This document shows positions 1-64,000 of a stretch of 64,000 bases of DNA, piece after piece. Position numbers and translations under genes: made by a program. Origin of the DNA: Scenedesmus sp. ARA3 (Eukaryota; Chlorophyta; Chlorophyceae; Sphaeropleales; Scenedesmaceae); assembly GCA_004335835.1 (NCBI GenBank), contig RWJK01001720.1, positions 67,792 through 131,791 of the forward strand, in the 5' to 3' direction. The notes under the pieces are model-generated. The model worked only from the letters and a program-made list of their open reading frames with translations, was not told the origin of the DNA and did not search any database. Positions within the stretch are counted from its first letter, which is position 1. The number at the start of each line of letters is the position of its first letter.

Positions 1-26
1 CTGCATCTTCCTCATCCTCGCTGCCA

Positions 27-65
<39 letters not shown>

Positions 66-251
66 GCAGGCCCCTGCTGCTGCTGCTGCTGTGCTGCCAG
101 GTGCTTTGCCAGCGCCACGAGGCACTTCACTGCCTGCGTGCACAGCCCCTCATCTACCACCTCTGCCTCTAACTGCCTGTACACAAACAGCGCCAAAGCC
201 CCAGCACTCACACTGCAGCTGCTGCTGCCATCTTCACTACTGCCAGCACCC

Positions 252-290
<39 letters not shown>

Positions 291-585
291 TCATCAGCAC
301 CGCTGCCAGCAGCAGCAACCTGAATCAGGCCGTCTGTAACAGCAGGCGCAGCCAAGCCAAGCCCCAGCAGCCGCGCAGCCACCTTGCGCACCCACAAGTG
401 CGGATGCAGCAGCAGCCGATGCACCAGCAGCCGCCACAGCTGCTGCACCTGCTGGCCCTGCTGCCAGCTCAGCGCTGCTATCCCCTGAGGCCCACTGGCA
501 GCCTTCTCTAGCATCAGCAGCACATGGTACACCTCCTGCCAGCGAGGCACCCCTCCAGACAATCCTGCAAGACCAGCTTCCTCAC

Positions 586-625
<40 letters not shown>

Positions 626-3600
626 GGCGTCAGCATCATCCGCAGCAAAGCTTGCTGCCAGTGCTGCATCTGCTGCTGCCGCCGCGCCATCCAGCAGCAG
701 CACCAGCCAACCCACGAACTCCGGACTCAGCCGCCGCTGGCCAAACCTCGGACCTTCTGCTTCAGCCAGCAGCCCTAGCGCATGTGCTGCTGCAGCGCGC
801 AGCAGCAGCAGCTGCTGCTGATGTGGCGCGTCTGCGCCCTTGAAGAGCCACTGCTGAGCAAAACCAGCCAGCTGGTCATTCTGCTGCGCCTGCAGCTGCT
901 TGTGCAGCAGCTTGACCGTGGCTGCTACTGCTGTGCGGGCTTTGGGGCTGGTCTCGTTTGCCAGGCGTGTCACTAGCGGCAGGTATGCTGTGGCTGCCAG
1001 GTTGGCAGTGACTTCCGGCGGGAACTTCAGCAGCACCTGCAGCAGCACAGCAGCACCAAAGCAGCAAGCAGCGAGTTCAATATGTAGTTCAGGTTTGCGG
1101 TGACTTCTGGCGGGAACTTCAGCAGCACCTGCAGCAGGCGGAGCAGTACCACAGCAGACAGCAGCAGGTTTACAGGTTTACCATGTAATTTAGCTCATGA
1201 CAGCCAGGTGAGGCAAGATTGCTGGCACCACCTGGGTCAGTCGTGAAGGAGGTGCACAAGACAAACCCTCGCCAGCTGTGCCAGCCGTCACACACCTTAC
1301 GTACGCCACGGCATGCGTGCAAAGCACATGCAGCAGCAGCGCAGTTTGGCGTCCCTGCTGCAGCATATCCAGTACAACAACTGTCTTCACAACACAGTAC
1401 CAACATATTCAAACATGTGCCACGCGCCAGCAAAGACTGTACACATGCACAGCCCCCGCACCTGCTGCAGCATCTCCAGCGCCGCCAGCCGGCCGCTCTC
1501 GTGCTCATAGCCGGCATTGGACAGCAGGAAGGCCACGTGGCCCTGCAGCCTGCTGGGGCTGAGCGGGTAGTCCAGCAGGAACTGCAGCAGCGACGCGGCA
1601 GCAGTGGCGCGGCCGGGAGGCGAGTGGCTCCTGCAGTAAGAGGGTCAGTGGCGGCAGCAGCAGCAGCAGCAGCAGCAGCGTCAGTTGAATGTGGTGCGGC
1701 GTGTGGTTGCTGCAGGGAATAAAAGCAGGCAGTCTGCCACATACCACAGCCGAATCCAACACATCATATCATCAACCTTCCAGCAAAAGCGGCTGCACTG
1801 CAGCTGACGTGAAGCCCCAGCAGCTGCTGTGAGGCCACGAATGCACTCACGTGATCATCTGCTTCTGCACGATGTCCATCACGTCATACACCTCAGGCAC
1901 CAGCAGCCGCCGCGCCAGCACAGCACGCAGCAGCCCATAGCCGCTCACGCGCTCGCCGCTGCTGCTGCTGCTGCCGCCGCCGCTGGTGCCTGCCAGTGCT
2001 GCTGCTGCGCTGGCTGCTGTTCCGCCGGACTGCAGGTCTGCTGCGATCCACTTGAGCAGGAAGCGGATCTGAGGGGTGGGAGGGTTGTAGCTGGGGCAGT
2101 CGCGCAGCATGGCTGCAGCAGGCAGCAGCAGCAGCAGCAGCAGCAGCAGGGAAGGTGTGCTCAGGGAAGAAAGAAGGGTGCAGGCGTGGCAGCAGAGATG
2201 GTGTGGGGTTGCAGTGAAAGTGACTGATGGCAGCATGTTTGGGAGGCACCGTCCAGCACTGCAATAGCTGCGGCTCCTACAGTTGTTGCTGCGGCTGCAG
2301 CTGCGTCTGCTGTGGTTGGCCTGCGCTTGTGCCGCACCTGCCAGCAGCCTGAAGCAGTCCTGCGCCTACGAGTGGTGTGCTTGCCATGCCTAATACTACT
2401 ACTGCACCGGTTGGGCACTGAAGGTGGCACCAAGCGCCCCTACCAGTTGCGTCAAACCAGCAGAAAAACACCAAGAAAGGCATGAAGCGTATGCCGCACC
2501 TCCCAGCAGTCTGAAGCAGTCCTGCGCCAGGGGGTGGCCCGCGTCAGGCACCTTGCGCAGCAGGCTGCTCAGCGCCTTGCCGGCAGCAGCAGCAGCGGCA
2601 GGCAGCCCGGGCAGCTGCTGCACGCCCACCAGCAGCGTCAGCGCCTTGAGCGCGGCCTGTGGTGTGTGCAGGAAACACGGTAACAACATCATACATGGAG
2701 GTCAGCAGAGCTGTGATGTTTGACTGACCGTTTGACTTTGTACTGCGCAGGTGGACCTTGAAGTTGTGCAACAGCAGAGAGTGAAGGTAGGAGTACCGGC
2801 AAGCAGGCGCTGCACGGCGCCTGTAAGGTGTCAAGAAATGCACATTGTTGACGTCTTTGAAGCACATCAAAAACAACATCATGGATTAGCCAAACACAAA
2901 AGCAGCACATCACAACATAACAACAGCAGTAAAACACCAGCAAACACTCTACTGCAGTAATTGCAGCAAGCCCGCCACCCACCTGCACGCTCCCCAGGTG
3001 CCTGCTGTACAGGCAGCGCACCAGCAGCGGCAGCAAAACACAACAGCAACATACGCCAGCAGCAAACACAACTGCAGCAACCCCATTGCCACCCACCTGC
3101 ACGCTGCCCAGGTGCCTGCTGCCCAGGCAGCGCACCAGCAGCGGCAGCAGCGGGTCCAGCAGCGCCATCTCTGAAGCACATCAACAACGACATCAACAAC
3201 AACATCATCATCAAGTCTGCAATCAGGCCACGGCAGCACAGCAGCAACCCCTGCAGCAGCAGCCACCCACCTGCACGCTCCCCAGGTGCCTGCTGTACAG
3301 GCACCCAAACACAACAGCAAAACACAAATAAACAACAGCAAATCAAATCGCAGCAATCCCATCGCCACCCACCTGCACGCTCATCAGGTGCCTGCTGTAC
3401 GGGCAGCCACACACAACATCAACAGCTAAACACAACACAACAAGAGCAGACACTCTACTGCAGCAATTTTCTGCACGCACCTGCACGCTCCCCAGGTGCC
3501 TGCTGTACAGGCAGCGCACCATCAGCGGCAGCAGCGGGTCCAGCAGCGCCAGCACCTCACGGCTCCTGCCTGCCAGCACTCCCTTCTTTAGCGCCGCATT

Positions 3601-5885
3601 CAGCACAGCAAGACAAAAAGCCACCAGCAGGTACAGGTGCTGCGAGCCATCCCCTGCTGCTGCTGCCTGCACTGCTGCTGTCTCCTCCTCATCCTCTGCT
3701 TCTTCATCTGCCTCATCTGCTGCTGCACCGTTAGTAGCTGCATCGCCAAACTGCTTCGGCGTGCGCTTGCCCGCAGCAGCGCCAGTCGCACTCGCCGCAC
3801 CCACAGCCGCCTTCGCCTTCGCCCTGGCAGCCTCTTCAACCTTCAAACAGCCATCCAACTCCCGCCCGAGCCACACTGCTAAACCCTCCGCAGTAACACT
3901 CGGGTTACCCCCAACGCCTCGCGCAGCAGCAGCTAGCAGCTGCTCGAGCTTTGCTCGTATGCTGGGGCTTGTTGCGGATGGCAGCTTGCCCTGAACCAGC
4001 TGCAGCAGCAGCGTGATCTGTGTGTCGAAGGTGACTGCTGCTGCCAGGTGCTGGTAGGCCTCGTAGGCCCTGCAGCGCTTGGCTTCTTTGTACTTGCCCG
4101 CAAAAGCAGTGGCCTCCTTGGCCTCACTGACCTGCGGGCAGCGTTACAGCGGCAGCGCAAGACCCAAGCTGTAAAGCCACGTCACAACTTTGAAGTTGTA
4201 CAGCAAGGTCATCACCCCTTGCCAAGGCAGCATCTTAGCAACCCCAATAACAGCAGCACCCATGTGCAAGCAGCAGCACTCATGTGATGCGCAAGCAACA
4301 GCACCCATCTACTTTGCAATCATTGCATGATGCCATCTTAGCAGCCCCTCACCGAGCCGAAGAGGTCCCCCTCCAGTGTGGGCAGCAGCAGCGGCAGCGC
4401 CTCGTCAAGGGCCCCTGGGCTGACGCCAGCCGCCACGTGCGCCGCCAGCAGCGACGCAGCCGTGAAGCCCAGCACGTGCGCGGTGTAGCCCTTGTCAGGC
4501 AGCACGGCACGCAGCACACTGCAAGTTGGGGGCAGTAGCAGCAGCGGCAGCAGCAGCAAACGTGTCAGGTGAAGCCCGTGCGTGTGGCAGCAGCAGCAAA
4601 CGTGTCAGGTGAAGCCCGTGCGTGTGGCAGCAGGAAAGGCGTGTCAAGAACAGAGAGCAAGTCAAAGTCAATACCGAAGAGAGGACCGCACCCCACTCAC
4701 TTGACGACAGTGGGCAGATACTGCGAGCCCAGCTTCAAGCACAAGTCGTCAGCACAGCCGCAAGCAGCCTTTGTTGTATCCACCAAATCCATCAAATGCC
4801 ACGCACCACGGGATACTGGTGATGGGGATAATCAGCATGCCAGGCTCATAAAGCACAATGAGCACCTTCAGGCAGGATTGTAACAGTGTTGCCCCGCTCA
4901 CTTGATGACTGTGGGCAGGTACTCAGGCCCCAGCTCAAGGCATGAGTCAGTCGGCACAGCAAAGCATGCAACTGCAACACAAGCGACATATCATGGCATT
5001 TGTCCACTCACTTGATCACAGTGTCTAGTACTCAGGCCCAAGCTCAAGGCACAGGTCGGTCAGCACACACAGCATGCAACCAAATAACAACGAACAACAA
5101 CGCACTTGATCACAGTGGGCAGGTGCTCCGGCCCCAGCTCCAGGCACAGGTCAGTCAGCACAGCACAGCAGCACAGAACACCACAGCAACATCATAGCAC
5201 AGCACAGCAGAGCACAGAAGAGCCACCACTCACTTGATCACAGTGGGCAGGTACTCCGGCCCCAGCTCCAAGCACAGGTCAGTCAGCACAGCGCGTGCTG
5301 CGTCTCTGCTGCTGTGCAGCCGGCTGCGCAGCAGGCCCCCAATGGAGGTGAGGCAGCGCGGCAGCGCCACACGCTCCACGTCAGCCGGCAGCAACTGCGA
5401 GCAGCAGCAGCGGTGGCAGCGGCAGCAGCGATGTAAGTGGCCATCACCTGGATTGACCATTGAACACGGTGCAGTGCAGCTCACACAGAAAACACCAGCA
5501 GCTGAGATGCATAAAACATAACAACCTTGGCAAGCACAGCAGTCAAACATTACAACCTTCAAACCCCAAACCCTTACCTTGATGAGTTTGACCAGAGCCA
5601 GCGCCACAGGTGCCCTGGCTACCTCCTGGTCATCAATCACCAGCTGACTCTGCAGCACAGGCAGCACTCGCTTCATCAGCAGCTGCTTGGCAGCAGCAGC
5701 AACATCGGCAGCAGCAGCAGCACGCTCCGCTCTTGCTGCTGCTGCTGCTGCCTCCTCATCCTCCTCCTGATCTTGTTGCTGCTCTTCGTCTTCTTCTTCC
5801 TCTGTGTCTTGCTCGGCTGCTGCAGCATCAACACCCGCTGCTGCTGCTGCTGGTGATGCGCCATCCACCTCCATCGCCCCGCTCC

Positions 5886-5944
<59 letters not shown>

Positions 5945-6293
5945 GGGGCCTCCTCCACATCCAACTCAAAGTGAAACGCATCCAGCACAGCACAGGCAGC
6001 CCTGATAACCTGCTTCCGAGGACTCTGAGTCATCAGCTTCAGCCAGCGCTGCAACAAGCCACTGTACTGCTGCCACCCCAGCAGCCGGCACAGCTCCCGC
6101 AAAGCATCAATCGCAACATCAGCCACTGCTCCCTCTCTGTCGCTGTCAGATTGCGTCTTGATGTGGCCGCCGCGCTGCACGGCAGCAGCGGCAGCAGCAG
6201 CAGCGCTGCCGCTGCCCACGCCGGCACCCTCCATGATGAACTGCTGCAGCAGCGGAGCAGCAATGTCCATCAGCACACGCACACTCACGGCCT

Positions 6294-6341
<48 letters not shown>

Positions 6342-6402
6342 GCTGCTGCTGCTGCTGTCGTGGGCGCTTGGCACCAGCTGATGCCGCTGCGTCCTTCTCC
6401 TC

Positions 6403-6442
<40 letters not shown>

Positions 6443-6812
6443 GCAGCTGCACCCTCACCATCAGCTAGTCGCTGCCTCTTTGCTGCGCCCGCCTCCGCAG
6501 CAGCATCCTCTCCCTGCCGCTGCTGCTGCTGCTGCTGTGCTGCCATCCGCCCCAGCAGCTGCAGCGCCCTGCCCCTCCTGTGGATCTGCAGGTGTGTTAT
6601 ATTCAGGAAGAAATCTTGCTCAGGATCTGCATTTGTGAGCGGCAGCAGATCAGGAAAGCGCCCCGGCAGCGCTAGCACCAGCGCCCGCAGCAGAGCAGCA
6701 TGCTCCTGCCTCACTGCCAAGTTGTTGCTGCGCAGGCCGGACTTGGCTTGCGGGTACAGCACACGAGGCAGCAGCCGCAGCGGATCGTCCTGACCTAGCT
6801 GCACACCTCCTC

Positions 6813-6860
<48 letters not shown>

Positions 6861-9800
6861 CTGCTGCTGATTCGAGGCCAATCCCCTGCTGCTGCTGCTG
6901 TTCGAGCTGTGCCATGGCGTCTACTGCTTTGCTCAGCGCAGATGCAGCAGCCTGCCGAATGGCCAGGTCATCGCCATTGCGCAGGTCAAAGAAGCCCTGC
7001 AGCAGCAGCGGCAGCGCCTGCAGGCGGCTGTAGCTTGCCCAGATCTGCGGCTGCAGCCGGCTGTAGCAGCCCATGCGGCGGCTGTAGTCGGGATCATCCA
7101 GTGACTCAACCGACCACGAGTTGAGGTCCACGAGCTGAGCTGCAACAGCTGAGTAAGGCGAATGTGCTGCGTCAGCTGAGTCACTGGCAGTAGCGCTGCT
7201 GCTGCTGCTGGTGTGCTGCAGCAGGCCGCTGAGGGCTAGCAAGGCATCTGCTGCTGCGCTACGGGCATCTCTGCTGCCCAGCTGCCCAAACAGCAGCGAC
7301 AGCGTCTCCCAGTGCTGCAGCAGCACCTCCTGCTGCTCTACCTCTGCTGCTGCTGCTACGGCCCCACTCGTGCCAGCCTGCTGCTGCTGCTGCTGCTGCT
7401 GCTTGCTGTGCGGCTGCTGCAACGCCCTCCATAGTGCGGCAACTGCCCCAAGCGCTTTCCCCATGCCCTTCTCATCGAGCGCAACACGCTTGCCTAAACC
7501 CCCGCCCGCCCTGCCGCCGCTGCTGCCGCCGCTCCTGCCACTATTAGGAGGTTGTAGCAGCGCCACAAGGGCTGCAGCCAGGCTGGCGGCTGTAGCATTG
7601 TCGGGACAGTGCTGGCCTAGCGCCTGCAGCAGTGCCAGCTGGCGGTGCACGGAGGGGCGCTTTTGGTGGGGGCCTCCGCGGCCCTTGGGGCCCTGCAGCA
7701 GAAAAGCAATTGCATGTAGTTGGCTTGAGTGAGGATTGCAATACATCGGGTACCATTGCAAACTACCACAACTTGCCATACTGTACGCAGTAATAGCTAG
7801 TTTGAAACACTCATAAGCGCTACAGCTGCTGCAGCCATCCTGACTCACCCTGCCTTTGCCGCCTTTGTTGGGCCCAGCAGCAGCAGCAGCAGCCACCAGC
7901 ACAGCCTCCACACTGGACTTCAGCTCAACCAGCACACACCCGGCTGTAGCAACACACTAACACATGTTGGCCATGCTGTCTGCCAAAGCAGCTGGTTTCA
8001 AACACGCACAAGCGCTACAGCTGCAGCAACCGACACGCACAAGCGCTGCAGCAACCAACGCCAACTCACCCTGCCTTTGCCGCCTTTGTTGGGCCCAGCA
8101 GCAGCAGCAGCCACCAGCACAGCCTCCACACTGCCCTTCAACTCCACCAGCAGCAGCGGCGTCCACCGCAGCAGCACAGCAGCCAGCAGCTGCGGCTGCA
8201 GCGCCAGACAGGCCTCCACAACAGACAGCGCTGCTGCCCTGCTGGAGTCACTGCAGCCCTTGGACCCCAAAACCCTAATGCAGCTGCAGAGCAGCTTGCC
8301 GCCTAAACCCTGGGCAGCCCAGCTCGGCTGCTGACCTGGCGGCCACTGGCTGCTGAACCCTGGAACAGCTGAACCCTCCACCTGCTGCTGCTGCTGCTGC
8401 TGCTGCTGGCTGTCGATGTCCATTGCTAAACCGCTGCTGCCCGCCTCCTGGGGTTCCAGCTGCTGACTCGGCAGGTCTCCCAAAACCCTAGCCAGGCCAG
8501 GGTTTGCAGCAAGGGCTTCGACCGCTGCCAGCAGCGCTGGAGGTGCAGACCCAGCTGACTCCGGCACCAACCGAGCCATCAAGGGTTCAGCGGCTGCGAA
8601 AAACCCAGGCCAGATAGGGTTCAGGTCTAGGGTGGCTGGGAAGCGGCTAAAAACCTGCGCCAGGAGGCGCAAGCACTGCGAGCGCACTGCCCTGCCTTCT
8701 TCCCTCGACTGCGCATCTGCAGCTGGAGCTGCTTCATCTGCTGCTGCGCTGGCGTCCTGCTGCTGCGCCTGCATGCCAGCAGCTGCCGTCTGCAGCAGCT
8801 GCAGCGTAATTGCCAGCAGTGCTGGCAGCAGCGGCTGCAGCTGGTACCCCAGGTGACTCAGCAGGTCCTCAAAGGCATTCAAAAAGCCCTGCCGCCTGCG
8901 CAGCGGCTGCACCGCCAGCGTTGACCGGTCAACGGCGGTCAACCACCAGTCAACGGGGGAGTTGACCAGGTGGTTTGACCACCAGGGCGCCGGGATCAGC
9001 CTGCAGGAATTGATATCCTGCAAGCCGGCGGCTGCCTCGGCATCTGCTGCTGCTGCTGCTGCTGCTGGCTCGCCCTCTGGCTGTTTGAAGGTGCTGCTAA
9101 TAGGCATCAGCAGCAGCTCTAGCAGAGGCGTGAGCTCGGCCGGCTGCAGCGCAGCGAGTGCGTTGAGCACTGCTGCGCGTGCGCTGCCGGGTGCGCCCCT
9201 GCCGCCCAGCCTGCCGCTGCGCTTGGCCAGCTTGGGGTACAGCACCATGGTCAGCAGCGGCACAAAGCCTGCAAGTTCATGAAAAGCAGCAAAATGCCCA
9301 AACCGAGGGTGACCAACAGTGGCAGGTTGTGTGCCCTTGGGGTACGGCACCATGGTCAGCAGCGGCACAAAGCCTGCAGATATACAAGGCTTGATACTGG
9401 CTGCTCAGGTGAGGGTGATGACAGTGCTGAGCGGTCGAGGAGAGAGTTGTGGGGGTTGAAAGCAGCATGCCATGTCATGTGCAGTTTCAGGTTGCAGCGG
9501 CAGCCGCGACAGAAGTTTGTTGGGTACACAAGCTCAGGCAGCAGCCAAATTTTCACGAACACAGCAAATAAACAGCAAAGGGTCTTGCAATTTTCTTGAG
9601 ATGACAGTCATCAACAGTGAGCATGCGCCGCCCTTCATTGACCCTGGTCACTCGGGGTGCTGTCAGTGCCGGGTAAGCAGGAGCAGGAGTGATGTGGTGC
9701 GCAGCGGCTTGCAGCGCAAGGCTGCACGGCGGGGCACTGCCGGCACACAGCACAGTGCCGCCAGGCCGCCAGCACGCACGGTTGGGGAACATGCACTTAC

Positions 9801-10682
9801 TGTGCAGAACACAAACACAGCTGTGACGCAGGCGCAGTGCTCCATGCACTCATTCTCTTTTGCTTCCACACATCAGCAACCACGTTGCCGACTATGGGCA
9901 TACCCACAACCACGCACACATACAACACGTTCTCAACAAGTTCCTGTTTCACGAAACCAAAAGCGTGCTGTGTTCACTGCTGGCGCTCACTTGATCGTGT
10001 GTAAGGTTCCACCCTACCCACATTCCGACCACCACCACCACCACCACCACCAAGGCACCACCAACACCAAGTGCATCAACAGAACACCGGTGTGCGCAGT
10101 TGCTACAATATGCTCACTAAAGCTCACCTGGCCGTGTGTGGGGGTCCACCCTGCCCACATCCCCACGACCAGCACCACCACCAAGGCACAACCAGCACCA
10201 AGAGCATCCACAGAAAACCAGTGTGCACAATAGCTACAATATGCTCACTAAAGCTCACCTGGCCGAGTGTGGGGGTCCACCCTGCCCACATAATCATACA
10301 ACCATACCACGTTTGCAAAAGGATCAACAGTTAGGAGAAGAAACAGCATGCTGCTGCCCACCTGGCCGTGTGTGGGGGTCCACCCTGCCCACATCCCCAC
10401 TGCCTCCCTTCTTCTTCTTCAGCAGGTGCCGCTGCTGCTGCCGCTGCGCCTCATCCCCGCCCTGGTCAACGCCCTGGTCAACGCCCCGGTCAAACATGAT
10501 CGGGATGTTGACCAGCCCGCCGCGCAGCTTCGCCACGTCAGCCAGCTGCAGCAGCACATTCAAAAGATGTGCTGGCAGGAATGACAGCTTGAAAGATGAC
10601 AGGCAGCGCAGCGCAGCAGTCTGCAGGGAGGGGTCGCTTGACAGCAGCTGCCGCGCCACGGCCTCCTGCAGCTCGGCAGCCC

Positions 10683-10746
<64 letters not shown>

Positions 10747-11452
10747 CACCAAGGTTGTGAATGTAGGGGTTGCAACAGGTAGCATCTTACGTACAGCAAT
10801 AGCTTGCACACAGATCTGACCAGCAGGCTATACAAAGCAGTTGGGCCTCGTCAACTGCATGGATGTGCATTGAGTGATATGCATGCGCCGCCCTTCATTG
10901 ACCCTGGTCACTCGGGGTGCTGTCAGTGCCGGGTAAGCAGGAGCAGGAGTGATGTGGTGCGCAGCGGCTTACAGCACAAGGCTGCACGGCGGGGCACTGC
11001 CGGCACACAGCACAGTGCCGCCAGGCCGCCAGCACGCACGGATGTCTGAACATGCACATGCGATTCAACAACAGAACAGTTGAGACACAAGCGCAGTGTG
11101 AAGCCATGCGTGCCACTGGCTCTGTGTTGCTGCCACATGACTGCCCCCTCACAACATGCAGCAAGCCCGATTCCTCACAAAAGCTTTCCAATGTGTTCTG
11201 AATGACTCACCGCTGCTGCTTCTTAGGGTTCTTCAGCGCCCCCAGCAGCGCCAGCCACTCCATCATCACACCCCGCCAAGCCCTGATGCTGAACCCAAGG
11301 CCGCCTAAACCCTCGCGGCTCAGAGCACCCGCTAAACCGCTGCCCCGCTGGCGCTTGGCGGCCTGCTGCTGCTGCTGGTCTGCCGCTAGCTCTTTTGCTG
11401 CAGCTGCTGGCTCTGGCTGCTTGCGCTTGGCACCCACTGCAGCATCCTCACT

Positions 11453-11483
<31 letters not shown>

Positions 11484-13288
11484 TCATCTTCTTCTTCTGC
11501 TGCTGCTGCTGCATCTGTGGCAGGCTGTTCCTGCCCTTCATCCTCGCCTGCTTCCTCTGCTGCTCCGCCATGTGTAACAGCAGCAGCAAACGTCAGCAGC
11601 AGCGGCACCCAGTCCGCGGAAACCTTGTTCAAAACCTCGGGCGCTGTAGCAGCAGCTAAACCCTTCAAGATGTGAGTCAGCCGGTTAGCCGCGTCCGTGC
11701 AGCTCCCTGACGCTGCTGCTGCAACGCCGTACCCCTTCTGGCAGTAGCTCTGCCACTGCTGCTGCAGGTCAAACCCGGTCAAACCTTCGGTCAAACTTCC
11801 GGTCAAACTTTGACCTTGCTGCTGCTGCTGACCTGGCGCTGCTGCTGCTGTTGCTGCTGACTCATCGTCCAGCTCAGCCTCTGCTGTGCTGCTGCCCTGG
11901 CCTGCCAGGAACAGCTGCTGCACGTGGCTGATGTGGCTCAGCAGCAGCGGCCAGGCTGAGTCAGCGCTGCTGCTCAGCGCCTGGCCTAGCGCCTGGCTGG
12001 CTGGCTGCCACAGCGGGGAGAACCTGCAGCAGCGCACAGCATACAGCACATATTGTAGCAGTAAATACACAGCACACAAAAAAAGGATCCTCACCTGATG
12101 TGCAGCGTGCCGATCAACCCAGCAACCAGCGCAGGCAGCAGCACTGGCATGCACAACAGGGGTGTTTAAAAGCAGCGAATCAAAGATGCTCACCTGATGT
12201 GCAGTGTGCCGATCAGCCCGGCCACAAGTGCTGGCAGCAGCAGCGCAGGCACGCGCCCATACTCCAAATGGTTGCTGACCCGCTCCAGTGCTACAGCCCA
12301 GCGCCTGCCAGCCTCCACACTGCACGGCCGCAGGTGGATGTCACGTAATGTTAATAACACGTCACATGACAGCCCTTGAAACGCGGTGCGCTCTGCCTGC
12401 CCCTGCTGCGCTGGGTGCTGCTGCTGCTGCACTGCAGGATCAATGCTGCTGCTGCTGCTGCTGCTGCCGCCTGTGCCCAGGAATGCCGGCTGGTCAAAGC
12501 TGCACAGCAGCTGTAACGCTGCCGCCCGGAGCTTTTGACTGGCTGTAGTCAAACATGGCAGTAGCAGCTGAATGACAGCTGGCAGCTGGTGGGAAGACAG
12601 CAGCAGCCTTGCACCCGCTGCTGCATCTGCAGCAGCTGCTGCATCATCGGCTGCTGCACTATCTGCGGCTCCTGCAAACCCTGCAGGATCTGCCAGCCAG
12701 GTTTTAACGGCCTCCAAAACCATGGCGGTGGCTGAGACTGTGGCATAGTCCCTGCTGCCATGCTGCTGCAGCCAGGCCAGGGCATCAGCAGCAACAGCAG
12801 GCAGCTGCAGCGGTGCTGCTGCTGGCAGCAGCTGCGCCAGCATTGTGAGGGCCATACCCCGCAGCTGCAACAAGTCTTTGATGCTGACACTGCTGCTGCT
12901 GCTGCTGCTGCTGGCTGCAGCTGCTTCATCAGACTGATGCTGCTGCTGCTGCAGCAATTCAATGGCTGCATTGCACTCTGACATGACGCTGCTGTAGGTG
13001 CTGATTGTGTCCTCTGCCTTTGCACACGCATGTGGCAGCAGCTGCAGCCCAGCCCAGCAGTACAGCAGTGCTGACCTGGCATCAACTGTACTGCCTGCTG
13101 CTGCCTTCCAGCTTCCTGCAAGCTGCTGTACTGCTGCTGCCAGCTCAATACCGCCCGGCTGTGCTGTCAGCAGCAGCGGTAGCCCAGAGCCTACTGTTGC
13201 AGCAGGCCTCAAAAGCTCACACACTGCTATCAGCATTGCTAAAACCTGCCCTCCCACACTGCTGCTGCTGCTGCTACTAACTGTACTG

Positions 13289-13345
<57 letters not shown>

Positions 13346-15910: not shown

Positions 15911-15956
<46 letters not shown>

Positions 15957-16607
15957 GCAAGGGCTGAGTACACCGTTGAATATCACCAATGGTGTACTGC
16001 GTTTGCTGCACAAGCTACAGTGCTGCTCAACAACAGCTGCGCTGCTCTACGGAGACCCTGGGCGCTGCCACAAGAGCAGCGCTGCCGCCACAGATGCGCA
16101 CACCTCTCTAAGGTTTCCAGCAGCACCGGCGCCATCTCGCTCTGCAGATACCGTTCCTGCCTGCACATCAAAGTTGATACCTCAGGCACTGCAGCTACTT
16201 ACACCTAAACAAAGCGACGCACCTCTCCCAGACAGCTGGCAGCAGCGGCACCATCTCCCCCTGCAGGTCCCGCGCCATTGCTGCCAGCAGGTCAAACAGC
16301 GGCGGCAGCGCCAGCGGGGCATCAGGCCGCAGGCTGGACAGCAGCACTTGCAGCACCTGGCAGCAGCAGCAGCAGCAGCAGCAAAAAAAGTTGGCAGCAG
16401 CAAAAGATGGCAGTAGCGTCAGCAGGCATGGAGATGTGGCAGCTGCACCTGTGGTGAACTGAGCTGAGACATACTGACGAGCGGTCGCTGCTGCAGCATT
16501 CACCAACAGCTGTCTGGCAGAACACAACATGGCTGCTGCAAGTCTGTGCTGCAGCAGCAACTGTGCTTTGCTGATGTGCTGAGAAGCACATATGACATTG
16601 TGTGCCG

Positions 16608-16669
<62 letters not shown>

Positions 16670-16719
16670 NNNNNNNNNNNNNNNNNNNNNNNNNNNNNNN
16701 NNNNNNNNNNNNNNNNNNN

Positions 16720-16777
<58 letters not shown>

Positions 16778-25565: not shown

Positions 25566-25598
<33 letters not shown>

Positions 25599-27195: not shown

Positions 27196-27234
<39 letters not shown>

Positions 27235-27660: not shown

Positions 27661-27703
<43 letters not shown>

Positions 27704-29168: not shown

Positions 29169-29201
<33 letters not shown>

Positions 29202-40105: not shown

Positions 40106-40273
40106 GTCAGCTGTCGCAGCGTCTGCCAGAGCAGCAGCAACAGCAGTGGGTGTGCCGGCTGTCGCCTGCCCAGCTGCTGGTGGAGCCCAGTGCCCAACAG
40201 GGGCATGGTGTGCGCGAATGTGGATGGAGGAAAGGTGTGGCTGCACAAGCAGCTGCTCTAAGGCCTGCCAGGC

Positions 40274-40285
<12 letters not shown>
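39970..40285 (+). repeat. duplicated lipase terminal exon (WWSPVPNRGMVC)
   Basis: The last exon encodes WWSPVPNRGMVCKNVDG. A downstream copy at about 40177-40285 encodes WWSPVPNRGMVCANVDGGK with its own stop, so it could be an alternative 3' exon. Confidence 0.85.
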
Positions 40286-40305
<20 letters not shown>

Positions 40306-52597: not shown

Positions 52598-55500
52598 ATG
52601 GCAGCTATTCCCCAGAACCGCGCTGACATCGCATCTTCAAGCGTTAGTGGTCCATCTGGCTGCTGTTTGGAATCCCCAGGTGCGGCAGCCCGCAGCAGGC
52701 AGCAGCACTCAACTGCTACTGCCTTGGACGCCAGTCTTGCTCAAACCGGGCATTGCTCCGCAGGCAGGGTAAGTCAGTACCTACGTGACTATATGGGCAC
52801 CTGACAGGCCAGCAGCAGCCGCTGATCAGCGCACCCCACTCCCCATGCCTGCCCACCACCAGCACAGCAGGCAGGCCCCTGCTGCTGCTGTTCCTGCAAG
52901 CAGCAGCAGCAGGCAGCCAGGGCCACACCCAGCCGTCATGAGCTTGCAGAGAGAAGTCAGCATAGCGCAGGATGCATCTGCGCCCCCGGTGAGCACATGC
53001 TTCTTAGGCTGCAATGGCAGCCTGTGCGCTTGCAGGAACTGCTGTCCTCTGTGCTGTCGGTTGCAGTGTACTGCCCACCTGCTTGCCTGCAGCCACCTGC
53101 CCCAGCTTGCAGGACTTGCACTGAACTCAATTATTTTGCTGGTCAATAAGTAATTGCTGTGACTCATACATTTCTGGCCTGCAGGAAGCCCGGGTTGTTT
53201 CTCTGTCCAAGCTGCATGCCGTGATGGCTTCCCACCAAGCCAACAGGCAAGGGTAGCAAGCATTGAACAGCAGCGGTCGCCTGCATATATTCATGTGTAC
53301 TGCAAAGGCATGCAGGATGCAGCCGTATTGATTCTCTTGGCAGCGTGCTCACATAATCTACAGTAACCACAGCCCTGTAATGGGGGTGCAACAGTGCCCT
53401 GCATATCCGCCAGTGCAATGCAGCACACTCTTGCTGACGAGCAATGCATTGCTGCCACTTTACTCAATCCCACACCGCATGCTCCTGCAGGCCCGGCCTT
53501 GCTGTCGCAATGCTGCCATGGTTCCTGGCTGGCTGGCCGCACCTGGTGGCCTGTATGTGGGACCCCAACCCGCAGCTGCCTGCAGCAGTGGCACCGCTGC
53601 TGGGCATGGTCGGCGGCCTTGTCGCGTCCAGCAGGGCGGCAGCAGCAGCAGCAGATGATGCGGCATCCTCAGCTGCTGCTGCCACTTCATCTGACAGCAC
53701 CACCACCACCACCGCCACCGCAGACAGCGCAGCTGGGGCAGCAGCTGCTGCACCCACCACCACCACTACTGCTACTGCTGCTGCTGCCAGCTCCGACACC
53801 ACAAGCGATCCCCCGCAGAGGCAGCAGCAGCAGCAAACCCCACCAGCAGCAGCTGGCATGCCTGCTGGCCCACCAGTGCCCCCTCCAGGCCTGCTGTTTG
53901 ACTGGCTGCTGCCGCTGCTCACTGGCAGAGTCCCCCTGCCCACCGGCAGCCCAGCACCACTGCAGCTGCAGGCGCTGATCTGCAAAACACTCATCTACGC
54001 ACTACAGCAGCTGCCTAGCTGCACACCTGCTGCACAAGCCAGCACAACTGGCACCACATCATCATCATTATCATCATCAGCAGCTGTTGCATTAGCCGGC
54101 AGTAGCACGGACGCTGGCAGCAGCAACAGCAGCAGCAGTGCCGGGCAGCCGCCGCTGCTGGTTGCCCCAGTACCAGAGGCAGCAGCGCAGCAGCTGCGGC
54201 AGCATGGCAGCGCAGTGGTGGCTGCAGTGCAGGAGCTGCTGGAGGCTGTCACTACATCACCTCAGCTGCTGGCGCCGCTGCTGCAGCTGCTGCTGGAGGT
54301 CATCCGGATGGATGCTTCGGTCATCACAGGTGCAGTGTGGCTGCAGCCGCATCATGGGACATTGGCAAGTTGTTGTCTGCATTGCCCAGCAGTTGAATGT
54401 ATGTTTGTTGGCTGGCATGCAATATGCATGCGGGTGATGCATCTGCACTCTCTACCCTTTTAGAACTGCTCGCAGCAAGCTCCCCGCCAGGAGTACAACG
54501 CCTCTGATTGCTTCGTCCATCGCTGCGTTGAATGATAACACCTGTACTCTTCGTGTTTTCCTGATTTTCGTTGTGCTCGTACTTGCGCTTGTGCATCACT
54601 CTCACTGCTGCTGCTGCTGCTGCTGCTACCTCAGGTGCCGTGCTGCGTGACTTGCTGGACCTGCTGCTGGGCTGGTCACTGGAGCCTGGCCTGCCCAACA
54701 GGGACAGGTGCGTGAATAACATACCTTTTGGTTGCAAAACTGTTGCCACTGTCTACGAGCTACCTGTGCTGTCAAGCTGGGTTGGTGCACTTGGTGCAGC
54801 AACCATCGGCTAGCAGCAGCTGTGCATGCGCTCTGCTATGTGCTCAGGGTGCGCGCGTGTGCTTTATGGTCCTGCACACACCGATTCTCCAAAAGCTTAA
54901 GAGCATCTGGGTGCATTAGAGGGAATGCGGTGATATCCATGTGCGTGAGCATTTGCGCATGAGTATCTCGTCATGGCCGCATGCCTGCTTGCTGAGCTGC
55001 GCTGTTCGCGCTGTTTGCGCTGTTGTAGGCAGCTCACCGCGCGGGTGCTGGCGTCCTGCAAGGCCTGCTGGCCTGCCTTCTGCACACAGTCAGCTGAACA
55101 TTGCATTTTGTTCTGCGCTCTTGTATGCTGTGCTGTGGCTTGCAGGCAGCTCATCACGCGGGTGCTGTCCTCCTGCAAGGCCTGCTGGCTGGCTGAGCCG
55201 CAGCTGGTGGCTGATGTGAGCAGCAAGCTGCTTGCCGACCTGACGCAGCTGCTGCCCCCACCCCCTGCAGCAGCAGCGGCAGCAGATGAGACACAGCAGC
55301 GAGAGCAGAAGGATGTGAGGCAGGAGGAGCAAGTGCACGGTGCTGCTGCAGGCATAGCAGTCGCAGGCGCATTAACAGCGGAGCCTGCAGACAACACACA
55401 AGGAGAGCAGCAGCAGCAGCAGCAGCAGCAGGGTGAGCGCGAGGGCGACAGCGCTGAGCAGCAGCAGCAGAAGTTCCTGGCGCTGCTGTCCTGCCTAGTG

Positions 55501-57527: not shown

Positions 57528-57564
<37 letters not shown>

Positions 57565-59321: not shown

Positions 59322-59355
<34 letters not shown>

Positions 59356-62300
59356 GCAGAGCGGCGGGGGAGACATGGCAAGCAACAGCAAGGCAAGCTG
59401 CCGCGCAGCCAGCAGCTGCAGCTGCAGCAGCAGCAGCAGCAGGGCACTGGCCGTGCGTCATCCCCTACACCTGGCGAGCAGCAAACTAAGATCAGGAGCA
59501 GACATGCAGCAGCAGCAGCAGCTGCTGCTGCTGCCAGCACAACAGATAGCCAACCTGGCAGCAGCAGCAGCAGTGTAGGGATGCTGCAGGATCAGCTGAA
59601 GGCCCTCAGCCAAGCTTTCCAGGCTTCGCTGCTGCGCCTGGCTGCACCGGTGCTGTCTACGCTGCTGCTGCTGGTGGACGCGCTAGTGCAGCAAGGCGAG
59701 GCTGCTTCGATATCTGGGCTGCAGGCATGGACCCACAGCACCTTCTACGCAACGTGGAGGGCTGTGAGCAGGTTTTACGCGCTGGACCTCAGCTTGGATG
59801 CTGGCAGCAGCGGTTTAGGGCTTGGCGATGTGACTGAAGAACCTCAGTCTCAGCCTGAAGATGACTTTACCACAGCTAAACCTTCAGCAGCTGCAGGCCC
59901 CGCAGGTGTAAGTGCAGCGCAGCAGGGCACTGCCAGCACGCTGCTGCTGTTGTCATGGATGCGTGGTGCTGCAGCACAGGCTGAGGGTCGATATGAGGCA
60001 GCGCTCGCACTGCATGCAGCCTACCTGCAGTCCGAGGCCTGCAGCATCCCCTTGGGGCAGTGCTTGAGGGGCTTCCTGGCTGAGCAGATGGCAGCGTGTT
60101 ATGCTGCTGTGGGGGACTGGCAGGGGCTGGCCGGGCTGTCGAGCAGCAGCAGCAGCGGCGTGCAGGAGATGCGGCCGCAGCAGCAGCAGAACGTTGGTGT
60201 ACAGCACTGGGCATTTGCAGGTGCCGCAGGCATTGCTGCCCTGCAGCAGTGGCAAGTGGCAGAACAGGGGCGGCAGCAGCAGCAACAGAACAGGGGCCAG
60301 CAGCGTGCGCCTGGCAACATGCTGTTTACATCGGATTGCTGCCAGGTGCCTGGCTTGACGTCAACAGCCCATACACTCTTGAACGCACTCGCAGCGCTTG
60401 ATTCTGCTGGCACTCACAGTGCCTCTCCTTCACTGCTGCAGCAACAACAGGGTCTTTTGCTGCGGCAGCAGCAGGGCCAGCCACTGCAGCAGCAGCAGCA
60501 GCAGCAGCAGCTGGCAGCGGTGCTGGCAGAGGTGCAGGCCCAGCTGCAGGAGCTCAGCAGCCCGCAGCACATCCTGGCTGCCTGCAGCAGCAGCAACAGC
60601 AGCCATGAGCGGCATTGGCAGCAGCTTGCTGTGCTGCAGCTATTGCGCGGCGCGCTGGCAGGCCGACTGCAGCAGCAAGCGCAGCAGGGAGATGTTGCAA
60701 ATCTTACAGCAGTGAGGCAGCTGCTGCAGCTGCTGCCGCCGATGCATCACGCCAACCAGGGCCTGGATGAGTCCAGTAGCATTGCTGGCAGTTGCTGCTG
60801 GGAGGCGGCTCTGCTCTGCAATGGGCAGCTGCAGGGCAGCTGCTTTGCTGATGTGCAGTATGCAACGCCACTGATACAGGTGTGGGGACTGGGGAATGGA
60901 GAAGCCATGCGATGTGCACAGCATTGACATCTCATATTGAGTACTTGTGGCAGCGTATGAGCTGTGCTTCTGTTGTTGCAACAGACTATGTATGAAGCCA
61001 GCACTGACCCACTGTATCTTGCTGCCATGCTGCCTGGCAGGTACTGAGTGTAGCAGCCAACAGCAGCAGCAATAGCAGCAGCAGCAGTACTGCCTCTGGT
61101 GGCAGCCGCAGCACCCATCAAGCCCTGAAGCTGCTGCTGCGTGAGGCGCTGCTAGCCGCCAATGCAGCTGGCTGCATCAGCATGCAGCAGCGGCTGCTGC
61201 GCCTGGCTGACAGTGCTGGCTGCAGCTCAGAAGATGAGCGGCTGTGGCTGCAGCTGCTGCGGTGCAAGCTGGACCTTGCAGCCAGCGGGAGCAGCAGCAG
61301 CGGCTATGACGCACTGCAAGAGGCTGTTGCTACCCACTTGGCATTGCTCAAGAAGCACGGCACCTTCTCCCCAACCAGCAGCAGCAGCAGCGCAGGTGGT
61401 TCAGCGGCATTGGCAGCAGCCTACCTCTCATTATCGCAGCTGCTGTCTCCTGAGGCAGGCGCCAGCCTGCCTGCTGTGCAAGGAGTGAACTGGCAAGCCG
61501 CAGCCCACAGCAGCTGGGGACAGGTGACATCTGAGCAGCAACAAGCGCCAGATGCTACACCCTATAATGTTCCAAAGTGTTCTGGGTATAGCCCTGTGAC
61601 AGCTGGCCAGTGTGCAGCTGCTATTGATGTGCTGCCAGCTGGCTATGTGTCAGCCGCAGCCTGCTGTGCCGCTGCTGTGGCAGCAGCGCCGGCAGCAGCA
61701 GCACCATGGAAGGCGTACGGCGACTTGCTGTACAGCTTAGCTAGCAACATCGAGCAGCAGCAGCAGCGGCAGCAGGGTCATGCGCAGCTGCTGGCTGCAG
61801 CCGCAGAGGCGTACTGCAACTACCTTGCAGCAGCAGTGAACGCAAAAGCCCTGGCCTCACCAGAGCAGGGCTTAGCTGTGCTGCTGCGGCTGTTAGAAAC
61901 AATCCTGCAGCATGGAGAGGCTCTGCAGCCGCAGCTGCAGCAGGCTTTGGGCAGTTGCCCAGCAGCAGCATGGCAGGTGCTGACGCCACAGCTGCTCGGG
62001 CAGTTGCAGCATGGCAGTGCTGCTGTGCGGGGGCTGGTGCAGGGGCTGCTGACGGGGCTGGCGCGTGTGGTGCCGTGCTCGGTGCTGTACCCGCTGATTG
62101 TGGAAGTGCGGGCGGCACAGGAGGCCGGCCAGGAGGTGGGTGTCGGCTGCAGCTTCAAGCTTCAAGCTTGTTTCTGGCCCGTATGTTTGTGGGATTGTAT
62201 ATTGGTTGTTGTTGACACCTGCAATGCATGCATCGGTGTCTGAGGGTGGGCGGTGCAGGAGGCGGGCCAGGAGGTGGGCGGCGGCTGCATCGCAGCTGCA

Positions 62301-63463
62301 GGCTTCAAATGCTCTTGTCAGCTCGTTTGTGGGAGTGCACACTGGTTGGTCATGCGATGCATGCGCAGGTGTCTGCAAGCTTGCTGTTGTGTGTGCTTTG
62401 CCCTGCAAGCGCTTTCATCGTTCATCGGCAGCGTGACACGTTGTGCCTGCGTCGCTGCCACTGCTGCTGCCTGCCGCCTCGCCTGCTGCTGCTGCAGCCG
62501 CCGCCGGAGCTGGCTGCGGTGCTGTCTCAGCTGCAGGCCCGCCAGCCGCGGCTGCTGGCCGACACTGCCGCCATGGCTGGCGCGCTGGAGGCACTGACGG
62601 TGACACCCCGGGAGGCGTGGGCGGGCCTGCTGGGCGAGCTGGGGTTGGAGGTGGACCGCAAGCTGCTGGCGCTGCAGGTAGGCGGTTTAAATGGTTTGGA
62701 GATTTGACATGGAGTTTGGTGGCAGCTCAGGAGGTATGTGGGGGGCTGCTGGGGGAGCTTTGGTTAGAGGTGGACCACAAGCTGCTGGCGCTGCACGTGG
62801 GCGCTGCACAGTGCACAAAGCACATTTCTGCTGCTGTACAGTTCTCTGCTCCCTGTGGGCTGTGTGGGGAAGCTGGGGTTTGCCATCTGCAGTAGCTGAC
62901 ATGCTGCAAACTGATGGCACGCTTCGCCCGCTGTGCGGTGTTGTTGTGCTGTGTGCAGGCTGATGCGGCGCGGCTGGTGCAGCAGGGCCTGGGCAAGGAG
63001 CGGCGCATTGAGCTCATCACAAACAGGTGCAGCGGCTGCTGCTGCTGCCGCTGGCATGATGGCAAAAGCGCGCAATCTGCTGATAATGTATTGCCTCATG
63101 CAACGCAGTGTGCAGCCCTTGCAGCGGTATGTTCCCTTCACTTGCTCTATTGCTGTGTCCTGGCCCTGCAGCAGGTTGCATGTACTACATGCATCTGCCA
63201 AGGGCTCTCGCGCTACCGTGTATATTTCGGTGTGATGCAAAGTAATGCATGTTACGCGGCTGCTGCCTGGCTGCTCCCAGGTACCACACTGTGATGGCGC
63301 CCGTGCGCTCGCTGCTGCAGCAGCACCTGGCAGCAGCAGAAGCAACACCCCCGGGCTCACCGGACGAGGCTGCCTTCAGGCAGCAGGTACTGCCGCAGCT
63401 GCACAGCCTGCTGGCAGCGCTGCAGCAGCTGCCGTCTGAGCTGCTGCATGCAGTGGAGGACCC

Positions 63464-63494
<31 letters not shown>

Positions 63495-64000
63495 GGACAA
63501 GCGCCAGGAGGCACAGCACGGCAGCCAGGCTCCACCACTGCAGCTGCAGCAGCAGGGCGCGCCAGCAAGCCCGGCAGCAGCGCAGCCACTGTGGCAGCCT
63601 TTGCGCCGCTGAAGCAGCTGCAGCAGCAGCTTGCGCAGCAGCTGCGGCAGCAGCACCATCTGGAGCTTGCTCGTGTGGCTCCTCTGCTGGCTACGCTAAA
63701 AGACACAGCCATCCCGCTGCCTGCTGACGACCTCACCGCAACAACGCTGCCACCTGTGCCACTACGGGCACTCCTGAATCTAGATCCAGACGGCAGCAGC
63801 AGCACTGCTGAGGAGGGGCGAGCACCTGCATCAGGCGCTGCGCTGGCAGCAGCAGCAGCAGATGCAGGCGCAGCAGCAAGCAGCGGCAGCTGGCTGTGCA
63901 TTGCAAGCTTTGACACTGCTGTGCTGGTGCTGCCCACAAAGACACGCCCAAAGCGGCTGCGGCTGCTAGCCAATGACGGCAGCGTGCATGCCTTCTTGCT
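52598..64000 (+). CDS. SMG1: SMG1 phosphatidylinositol-3-kinase-like kinase (NMD), N-terminal HEAT part, 3' end beyond window
   Basis: SMG1 phosphorylates UPF1 in nonsense-mediated mRNA decay. Proposed first exons: 52598-52768 (MAAIPQNRAD), 52830-52988, 53185-53246 (ends with a GC donor, CAG|GCAAGG) and 53491-54329, all joining in phase. Later blocks: LLDLLLGWSLEPGLPN (54638-54708), QLITRVLSSCKACW (from 55146), a long exon 56444-58742, then VCDDWLSRVRDSLLCLS with HTIYHGMARLQEL (59021-60879), which closely matches the SMG1 solenoid (VCEDWFSRIR). Next 61041-62135, LLADTAAMAGALEALTV near 62550, RYHTVMAPVRSLL near 63280, and VLVLPTKTRPKRLRLLANDG at the window end, the conserved lead-in to the SMG1 kinase domain. 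Poly-Q, poly-A and poly-S inserts are frequent. The kinase, FRB and FATC parts lie outside. The start is inferred; ATG 52845 is an alternative. Exon edges at 55030, 62105 and 62615 are duplicated. Confidence 0.9.
55028..55185 (+). repeat. duplicated SMG1 exon start (QLITRVLSSCKACW)
   Basis: GTAGGCAGCTCACCGCGCGG at 55025 and GCAGGCAGCTCATCACGCGG at 55143 start two copies of a block of about 45 bp. The second continues the exon. Confidence 0.88.
56389..56443 (+). repeat. (CTG)n tract at an SMG1 3' splice site
   Basis: About 14 CTG triplets run into CCTGCCTTTCAG, the acceptor for the exon beginning at 56444. Confidence 0.85.
62108..62310 (+). repeat. duplicated SMG1 exon edge (QEAGQEVG)
   Basis: CAGGAGGCCGGCCAGGAGGT at 62118 and CAGGAGGCGGGCCAGGAGGT at 62257 begin two copies of the exon end plus donor. 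Confidence 0.8.
62618..62810 (+). repeat. duplicated SMG1 exon end (ELGLEVDRKLLALQ)
   Basis: The exon encodes LLGELGLEVDRKLLALQ|GTAGGC. A second copy encoding LLGELWLEVDHKLLALH follows at about 62742-62802, with GTGGGC. Confidence 0.88.

What the first reader, a model, noticed from the sequence alone, without database searches (positions are those of the whole stretch)
1..64000. Pervasive tandem duplication across exon-intron junctions
In all intron-rich genes of the window, introns or 3' flanks contain extra copies of the adjacent exon edge with its donor or acceptor: more than 20 independent cases. Copy number is 2-7, and ages range from near-identical to decayed. The intronless G-patch gene has none. 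I know tandem duplication of AGGT-containing segments as a proposed route to new introns; its density here suggests an active, lineage-wide process that enlarges introns, supplies spare splice sites or creates alternative exons. I infer the mechanism; the copies themselves are seen.
Basis: partly seen in the sequence, partly recalled or inferred. Interest (0 to 1): 0.9.

Follow-up and report, generated by a model that had tools for sequence, protein, structure and literature searches.

The report
Spare exon edges inside algal introns
In this green-alga genome about one exon end in six has one or more extra copies of itself, with an intact-looking splice site, usually about 90-160 bases away inside the neighbouring intron; the copies lengthen introns and look like spare parts, and why their exon half often stays intact while the intron half does not is unexplained.

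Summary
With home-made exon models, 84 of 465 exon edges have a direct copy in their own intron flank; inverted and random-flank controls give 0 of 465 each. The window has 28 such edges with 42 copies. At equal geometry, copies mark 75 of 464 junctions, 3 of 196 exon-interior points and 15 of 262 intron-interior points that pair with no exon. Nearest copies mostly sit 86-163 bp away (58 of 84). Introns with copies have median length 539, against 259 without. AGGT-type intron birth does not fit (0 of 120); tested spacers are not dispersed. Similarity drops at the splice site, steeply at donors, less at acceptors; 17 of 27 pairs with exon identity of at least 90% show no intron-side homology. 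Differences lean to synonymous (346:205). Best reading: recurrent ~120-bp tandem duplication across junctions, then homogenisation of the exon part by exchange with the working exon plus purifying selection, while the intron part drifts. Duplication is shown; exchange and selection are inferred. Assembly error is unlikely but not excluded. No RNA was available.

The parts
98..17411 (-). UTP20-like gene; many edges with intronic copies
   Evidence: PF07539 E 1e-23; homologues P0121-P0129, tblastn
1090..1136 (-). intronic copy of acceptor edge of predicted exon 1-1036, offset 92
2330..2366 (-). intronic copy of donor edge of exon 2500-2656, offset 162
2975..3407 (-). copies of donor edge of exon 3481-4131 (offsets 108, 210, 384, 498); the predicted exon 3097-3168 inside, whose own edges also match (2975-3035 and 3481-3551), may itself be one of the copies
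4693..5164 (-). four copies of donor edge of exon 5234-5394 (offsets 128, 223, 332, 533)
   Evidence: four-gamete incompatibilities
7843..7898 (-). copy of donor edge of exon 8070-9268, offset 221
9336..9378 (-). copy of acceptor edge of exon 8070-9268, offset 105, 98% identical, spacer matched only itself in the genome
10122..10291 (-). two copies of donor edge of exon 10362-10681 (offsets 103, 234)
12087..12143 (-). copy of donor edge of exon 12194-14096, offset 99; 7 synonymous, 0 nonsynonymous differences
14901..15498 (-). four copies of acceptor edge of exon 14414-14845 (offsets 98, 349, 499, 650), each with its own unrelated 3' splice region
15636..15714 (-). copy of donor edge of exon 15760-15908, offset 121; 6 synonymous, 0 nonsynonymous
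24543..24587 (+). copy of donor edge of exon 24125-24299, offset 282
25290..29812 (+). TrhO/rhodanese-like (UPF0176) gene; matched stretches 89-100% identical to Tetradesmus obliquus protein P0001, whose C-terminal end is read in the open frame ending 29812; its first 11 residues were not placed
25140..25201 (+). copy of the acceptor edge of the TrhO exon starting about 25293, offset 143; not among the 28 filtered edges because the HMM misplaced that exon start
25519..25569 (+). copy of donor edge of exon ending 25412 (GINCQGGGLREHTE), offset 149
25966..26358 (+). two intronic copies (E1, E2) of acceptor edge of exon 26446-26703, period 237; exon part 11:2 and 14:2 syn:non against the working copy
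27398..27464 (+). copy of donor edge of exon 27234-27338, offset 124
28005..28182 (+). two copies of acceptor edge of exon 28238-28436 (offsets 120, 228)
28502..28557 (+). copy of donor edge of exon 28238-28436, offset 115, spacer matched only itself in the genome
32820..32860 (+). copy of acceptor edge of exon 32971-33078, offset 143
34209..34291 (+). copy of acceptor edge of exon 34339-34515, offset 122, 96% over 83 bp, unrelated 39-bp spacer
35315..35411 (+). copy of acceptor edge of exon 35525-35899, offset 212; 14 syn : 3 non over the longer gapped match
35971..36007 (+). copy of donor edge of exon 35525-35899, offset 104
38954..38989 (+). copy of donor edge of exon 38577-38695 in an irregular array 38670-39348
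39498..39553 (+). copy of donor edge of exon 39201-39414, offset 131
40164..40303 (+). copy of donor edge of predicted exon 39878-40101, offset 207
48718..49043 (+). three copies of donor edge of exon 48569-48661 (offsets 115, 245, 375)
49284..49365 (+). copy of acceptor edge of exon starting 49406, offset 115; 4 syn : 0 non; left out of the filtered counts
55023..55072 (+). copy of acceptor edge of exon 55146-56060, offset 117
62718..62803 (+). copy of donor edge of exon 62498-62677, offset 119

Best explanation
This genome keeps making short tandem duplications of about 90-160 bp (typically about 120). A duplication inside an exon is lost, because it breaks the protein. One that spans an exon-intron junction leaves the mRNA unchanged, because the extra edge falls inside the intron, so it persists and lengthens the intron. 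Afterwards the two halves of the unit part company. The intron half drifts and in about half of the pairs is unrecognisable. The exon half stays 80-98% like the working exon, because the two direct repeats, 100-odd bases apart, go on exchanging sequence (conversion, or deletion that puts the copy into use), and exchanges from a damaged copy are selected against. The copies thus remain mostly splice-competent, coding-competent spare edges. Shown: duplication, its size range, its placement, longer introns, the drop of similarity at the junction, splice competence, excess of synonymous differences. Inferred: exchange, and selection acting through it.
For: 84 of 465 edges against 0 and 0 in controls. 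Junction, intron-interior and exon-interior rates are 75/464, 15/262 (purely non-exonic) and 3/196 (p values). Offsets: 81 of 112 primary pairs lie at 86-163 bp and 3 below 86. Median intron length is 539 against 259.

Intron-side homology in the register expected of a tandem unit exists in 22 of 46 pairs (z>=3; a control segment exceeded 3 in about 17%) and is absent in 24, while exon divergence is the same in both classes (p1/p2/p3 .061/.039/.164 for the 24.061/.049/.189 for the 22). Exon similarity is thus decoupled from intron decay. Donor-side identity over all 63 copies runs .98 .89 .81 .60 .84 .65 .56 .46 for +1 to +8.

Synonymous:nonsynonymous is 346:205 (0.63, CI 0.56-0.69) against 0.31-0.44 simulated for a neutral copy; 0.62 for out-of-frame or stop-bearing copies. 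Mosaic variants: four-gamete incompatibilities in 2 of 7 families tested, 3 of the 7 having no informative site; and an L019 intronic unit identical to the working edge over 47 nt while other units differ.
Against: The synonymous excess is moderate. Third positions may simply mutate faster, and copy-against-copy comparisons have a wide interval (0.57, CI 0.43-0.69). AG and GT in copies are intact in 41 of 49 and 48 of 54, about as often as exonic dinucleotides (0.82), so the splice dinucleotides are not specially protected. Some copies decay plainly: in L019 one unit has a 1-bp deletion and others carry two amino-acid changes, and 6 of the 551 codon differences involve a stop.

The boundary is less sharp than the donor average suggests: acceptor-side identity declines gradually (.90 .86 .92 .69 .68 .69 .69 .58 for -1 to -8, still about .4-.5 at -12 to -20 against a background of .27), donor-side identity at +9 to +20 (.25-.46) stays mostly above the background of .25, and the 9 donor copies of the replication set have .89 at +4 and about .56 at +8 to +12. 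Two of the 4 families with informative sites show no mosaic signal. What sets the ~120-bp size is unknown.
Confidence: 0.4

Rival explanations
1. Plain neutral model: random tandem duplications, purged from exons, decaying freely in introns. Exon edges stay recognisable only because one of the two copies is constrained.
For: Exonic duplications are nearly absent (0 of 106 pairs both exonic; 3 of 196 exon points). Splice dinucleotides in copies are kept at roughly the rate expected from first- and second-position divergence of about 0.05. Contiguous arrays such as L019 (108 bp, 8 units) look like ordinary minisatellites. Intron identity beyond the junction is above background on average.
Against: Purely intronic duplications are about three times rarer than junction ones at equal geometry (15/262 against 75/464, p 2e-5). 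24 of 46 pairs have no intron homology, and 17 of the 27 pairs with exon identity of at least 90% did not exceed z 3, although copies that young should still match on the intron side. Synonymous fraction is 0.63 against at most 0.44.
Confidence: 0.25
2. The intronic edges are used at the RNA level, as alternative donors or acceptors (regulatory or isoform-producing), and selection on that use conserves exon and splice signals.
For: Splice scores of copies with intact AG or GT equal those of working sites although the polypyrimidine tracts are often unrelated. Over all 63 donor copies position +4 (.60) is less alike than +3 (.81) and +5 (.84), as splice consensus would give.
Against: No frame bias of nearest offsets (28/25/31). 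Inner ends lack splice signals above the rate I expect by chance, so copies are not exons of their own. Use of most would frameshift. The +4 dip is absent in the 9 replication copies (.89). The annotated T. obliquus TrhO protein and another alga's transcript-derived protein (P0142) carry one copy only.
Confidence: 0.15
3. A process copies exon edges precisely up to the splice site (for example RNA-templated repair or template switching at splice-consensus microhomology), so the unrelated intron flank is there from the start.
For: For many copies at least 90% identical no intron homology is detectable (17 of 27). In the UTP20 array four copies share only the edge, with four different flanks.
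Against: 22 of 46 pairs do retain intron homology in tandem register, and average intron identity beyond the junction is above background. Three tested spacers match only themselves and the E1 unit only its own array, so no donor of the flank is found. I know of no pathway that does this.
Confidence: 0.1
4. Assembly artefact: false local duplications from gap filling or joining of divergent haplotypes, with offsets near read length.
For: Draft assembly (1567 contigs) of unstated technology. Offsets resemble short-read lengths, and a published T. obliquus draft used 101-bp reads with gap closing (PMC5255914, read whole); that it is this assembly was not shown. Synonymous-rich differences resemble allelic divergence.
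Against: Artefacts would also fall inside exons, yet 0 of 106 pairs are both exonic (14.4 expected). No second haplotype of a tested 801-bp stretch is held. Arrays of up to 8 units occur, and the partner is on the intron side in 54 of 58 one-junction pairs.
Confidence: 0.07
5. Birth of introns by tandem duplication of AGGT-containing exonic segments (Rogers model), with the copies as relics.
For: In one metagenomic relative (P0141) the TrhO reading frame runs without an intron across the site where this genome has the copy-bearing intron before AYVAW; gain here or loss there.
Against: 0 of 120 copies have offset equal to intron length. AGGT in both copies at 7 of 68 edges. The order in the TrhO intron is donor-edge copy first, then acceptor-edge copies, the reverse of the model's.
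Confidence: 0.03

Closest known systems
Junction-spanning tandem duplication in potato RdRp (Ma et al. 2016, PMC4974935; abstract and Results section read)
   Same: The duplicated unit spans an intron-exon boundary and carries the acceptor; the two copies sit in tandem.
   Different: There it is a single gene and it made a spliced new intron and exon, confirmed by RNA. Here it concerns 84 of 465 edges, both donor and acceptor, copies are intronic, and the flanking introns are often unrelated.
[quoted passage not shown] Drosophila cases PMC2891723, abstract read)
   Same: Local tandem duplication of coding sequence touching splice signals.
   Different: Requires AGGT in an exonic segment and an intron equal to the duplicated period; neither is met here.
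Direct repeats near intron borders / DSB-repair intron gain (PMC11782384, abstract read; Daphnia case via PMC3443670 passages)
   Same: Direct repeats at splice sites.
   Different: Those repeats are 4-30 bp, at or near the two borders of the intron. Here they are mostly 37-103 bp (median 55), and both copies belong to the same border.
Tandem arrays at splice sites in polyubiquitin (PMC10809524, abstract read)
   Same: Repeat units delimited by splice-competent sites.
   Different: There each site is dual-specific AGGT and whole coding units are spliced variably. Here the units are partial exon edges.
Tandemly duplicated alternative exons such as Dscam (search listing only, PMC3236188)
   Same: Coding copies in tandem.
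   Different: Here the copies show no splice site at the inner end, so they are not exons.

Membership tests
Rogers-type AGGT tandem-duplication intron gain | AGGT present at the same register in both copies | tested here: not met
   7 of 68 edges; exon background 0.19 per 60 nt
Rogers-type AGGT tandem-duplication intron gain | intron length equals duplication offset, copy begins at the opposite splice site | tested here: not met
   0 of 120 copies
Junction-spanning tandem duplication (potato RdRp type) | duplicated unit crosses an exon-intron boundary and carries the splice site | tested here: met
   84 of 465 edges, 0 in inverted and random controls; AG 41/49, GT 48/54 intact
Junction-spanning tandem duplication (potato RdRp type) | intron part duplicated in the same register | tested here: inconclusive
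   found in 22 of 46 pairs, not in 24
Junction-spanning tandem duplication (potato RdRp type) | duplication changes the spliced mRNA | not testable with these tools
   no RNA reads available
Introner elements / mobile introns | many dispersed copies of the intron sequence in the genome | tested here: not met
   three spacers match only themselves, the TrhO E1 unit only its own array (that search skips very common words)
Mutually exclusive tandem exons | each copy a complete exon with splice sites at both ends | tested here: not met
   inner ends: AG near start of donor-type copy 21 of 54, GT near end of acceptor-type copy 19 of 49, about the chance rate by my estimate, no control run
Ordinary minisatellite arrays | contiguous head-to-tail units of constant period | tested here: inconclusive
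   36 contiguous against 50 spaced primary pairs among those with offset under 180; irregular spacing in the UTP20 array

The most novel reading that the evidence does not exclude
Introns of this lineage hold a standing stock of spare exon edges. They are continually made by a ~120-bp duplication process and kept coding- and splice-competent because they keep trading places with the working edge, so that non-coding DNA evolves under protein-level selection through recombination rather than through expression.
Probability: 0.23. Interest if true: 0.88.

Novelty: new variant of a known kind. Interest (0 to 1): 0.7.

Why it matters
Single tandem duplications across splice junctions are known, and are proposed as a route to new introns. 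A genome in which about one exon edge in six carries one, at a range of ages, would let the fate of such duplications be followed statistically: how introns grow, when a second splice site is tolerated, and whether intronic copies are held to the coding sequence by exchange. It also warns gene annotators: intronic copies score as exons, and my own HMM called some of them exons (for example 34,217-34,282).

Tried and rejected
AGGT/Rogers intron birth: rejected as the general mechanism. Mobile or introner-like spacers: rejected for the three tested. Two-haplotype artefact: no second copy of a tested stretch, and no duplication with both copies exonic. Translated in-frame repeats: a real possibility in the TrhO 237-bp array, whose frame is open, but nearest offsets show no frame bias (all copies 48/34/40) and L019 spacers hold stops. 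Copies as whole exons: no inner splice signals above my chance estimate. A first codon model trained on long ORFs failed because low-complexity ORFs dominated it; it was replaced by one trained on homologue-supported exons. The splice-scoring weights were set by hand. The UTP20 protein search listed no T. obliquus orthologue, so UTP20 exon ends rest on the HMM plus distant homologues. A search with the three-unit TrhO frame, meant to find the same array in another assembly, found none among the listed proteins whose alignments I looked at (70 listed; two compared). Dropped before counts: copies under 35 bp, under 80%, low-complexity or not reaching the junction; window 49-51.3 kb; pairs without exactly one junction (58 of 106 kept, 46). 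The z values were typed. Prior-work searches; none of the titles and abstract starts listed reports this pattern in a green alga, but most subscription papers are not held.

Full report
Setting. The window is bases 67,792-131,791 of contig C1317 in an unnamed 87.3-Mb assembly of 1567 contigs. Stretches of a TrhO/rhodanese-like gene at about 25.3-29.8 kb match a Tetradesmus obliquus protein at 89-100%, so I take the organism to be T. obliquus or very close; the assembly itself was not identified. The minus-strand gene at 0.1-17.4 kb is UTP20-like. No annotation, RNA or related genome was available.

Finding the duplicates. Same-strand self-comparison of the window, with short-period repeats masked, gives 77 pairs, all within 3 kb. 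Twenty 10-kb stretches from three other contigs give 112 more. Reduced to 112 primary pairs, the offsets run mainly from 86 to 163 bp (81 of 112) and only 3 are smaller. In many pairs only 40-95 bp are alike and the stretch between them resembles neither flank.

Exon models. A small codon/splice HMM was trained on homologue-supported exons of the two named genes. It gave 234 exons and 431 junctions in 264 kb. It is crude: it scores only GT/AG sites and favours G at +5. In the single-strand run it called some copies exons (for example 34,217-34,282).

Enrichment and controls. 64 of 106 primary pairs (offset 80-300) touch a junction, against 28.7 +/- 4.1 at random and 35.3 +/- 4.5 after local shifts, with 500 runs each and maxima 42 and 48; none have both copies exonic against 14.4 and 10.4 expected. 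Searching each edge against its own intron flank finds copies at 84 of 465 edges; the inverted flank and a random flank give 0 and 0. In 40 kb fetched afterwards, 16 of 52 edges have a copy (these are among the 84). With identical window geometry, 75 of 464 junctions, 3 of 196 exon-interior points and 60 of 262 intron-interior points have a local copy. Of those 60, 45 have a partner overlapping a predicted exon, that is, they are mostly the other end of edge duplications, leaving 15 purely non-exonic; junctions against these, Fisher p = 2e-5. Junctions are therefore favoured beyond the mere removal of exonic duplications, among duplications still similar enough to be detected.

Consequences for introns. 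110 of 120 placeable copies fall inside the predicted adjacent intron. Introns with a copy (n=67) have median length 539, those without (n=148) 259. No copy sits at the opposite end of its intron, as AGGT-type birth would require. Longer introns also offer more room for copies, so the length difference is not all caused by them. Copies affect 44 donor and 40 acceptor edges.

The boundary. Relative to the junction, exon-side identity stays around 0.8-0.9. On the intron side, over all 63 donor copies, it is .98 .89 .81 .60 .84 .65 .56 .46 for +1 to +8, then .25-.46 to +20, against .25 when the register is shifted. Over all 59 acceptor copies it declines more slowly.90 .86 .92 .69 .68 .69 .69 .58 for -1 to -8, then about .4-.5 beyond -12, against .27. 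For the first-set donor copies at least 93% identical (n=26) it is 1.0 .88 .88 .58 .88 .77 .54 .46, whereas the 9 replication donor copies keep .89 at +4 and about .56 at +8 to +12. These averages are mixtures. Where the tandem register predicts intron homology, a gapped comparison finds it in 22 of 46 pairs and not in 24, although exon divergence is the same in both groups; of 27 pairs with exon identity of at least 90%, 17 show none. In the UTP20 family four intronic copies share the edge at 89-94% with the working exon, each with a different 3' splice region. Copies with intact AG or GT score like working sites and far above random intronic sites. Against special protection of splice sites: AG and GT are intact in 41 of 49 and 48 of 54, about as often as exonic dinucleotides (0.82).

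Signs of constraint. Differences between working edge and copy are 346 synonymous to 205 nonsynonymous (0.63, CI 0.56-0.69; 122 copies, 84 edges), 0.62 for copies that are out of frame or stop-bearing. Simulation with a neutral copy gives 0.31-0.44. Copy against copy is 111:85 (0.57, CI 0.43-0.69). In TrhO the exon part of the three units differs by 11:2, 14:2 and 11:4, the spacer by 1:8. This is suggestive, not proof: third positions may mutate faster, units within arrays are related, single pairs go the other way (for example 62,599 with 4:9 and 55,027 with 0:3), and some copies are plainly decaying. Mosaic variation is visible in 2 of 7 families tested; 3 of the 7 had no informative site.

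What it is not. Three spacers matched only themselves, and the TrhO E1 unit only its own array, so these are not mobile elements; that search skips very common words. Nearest offsets have no frame bias (28/25/31); all copies give 48/34/40. Inner ends of copies lack splice signals above the rate I would expect by chance. AGGT is rare in the duplicates (7 of 68).

Interpretation. Recurrent tandem duplication across junctions with loss from exons is well supported. To explain why the exon half often stays similar while the intron half vanishes, I favour continued exchange between the direct repeats combined with selection on the working exon: intron halves escape homogenisation quickly because nothing holds them, exon halves do not. 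A neutral model with chance survival, selection on use at the RNA level, or edge-precise copying remain possible, and the present data do not separate them cleanly. A published potato case (PMC4974935; abstract and Results read) is the nearest single-locus precedent I found. Literature searches listed nothing reporting it as a genome-wide pattern in a green alga; the library holds open-licence papers only.

Noticed in passing
window 26895-27065 (+), about 9621-9781 (-) and about 10880-11049 (-): A ~171-bp sequence with three matches in the whole assembly, 98% alike, all in this contig and in both orientations; unlike the edge copies it is dispersed over 17 kb.
   Followed up: partly
window 45018-45445: 65-bp unit, 6.6 copies, 96% alike, overlapping the start of an open frame: an ordinary-looking minisatellite with a shorter period than the edge duplications.
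   Followed up: no
window 21346-21557: 18-bp unit, 11.8 copies, read on the minus strand as repeated NYGPNG peptides.
   Followed up: no
window 49502-51262: Nested repeats with offsets of about 271 and 504 bp over 1.7 kb that the exon model calls exons; excluded from the filtered counts.
   Followed up: partly
TrhO intron before 26446 (window 25413-26445): A metagenomic relative's reading frame (P0141) runs without an intron across this site but departs from the family at a different place (after LISLAG), suggesting intron gain or loss at this gene.
   Followed up: partly
window 16670-16719: The only run of N in the window (50 N) lies between two TGC repeat runs, so such repeats are a likely assembly breakpoint here.
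   Followed up: no
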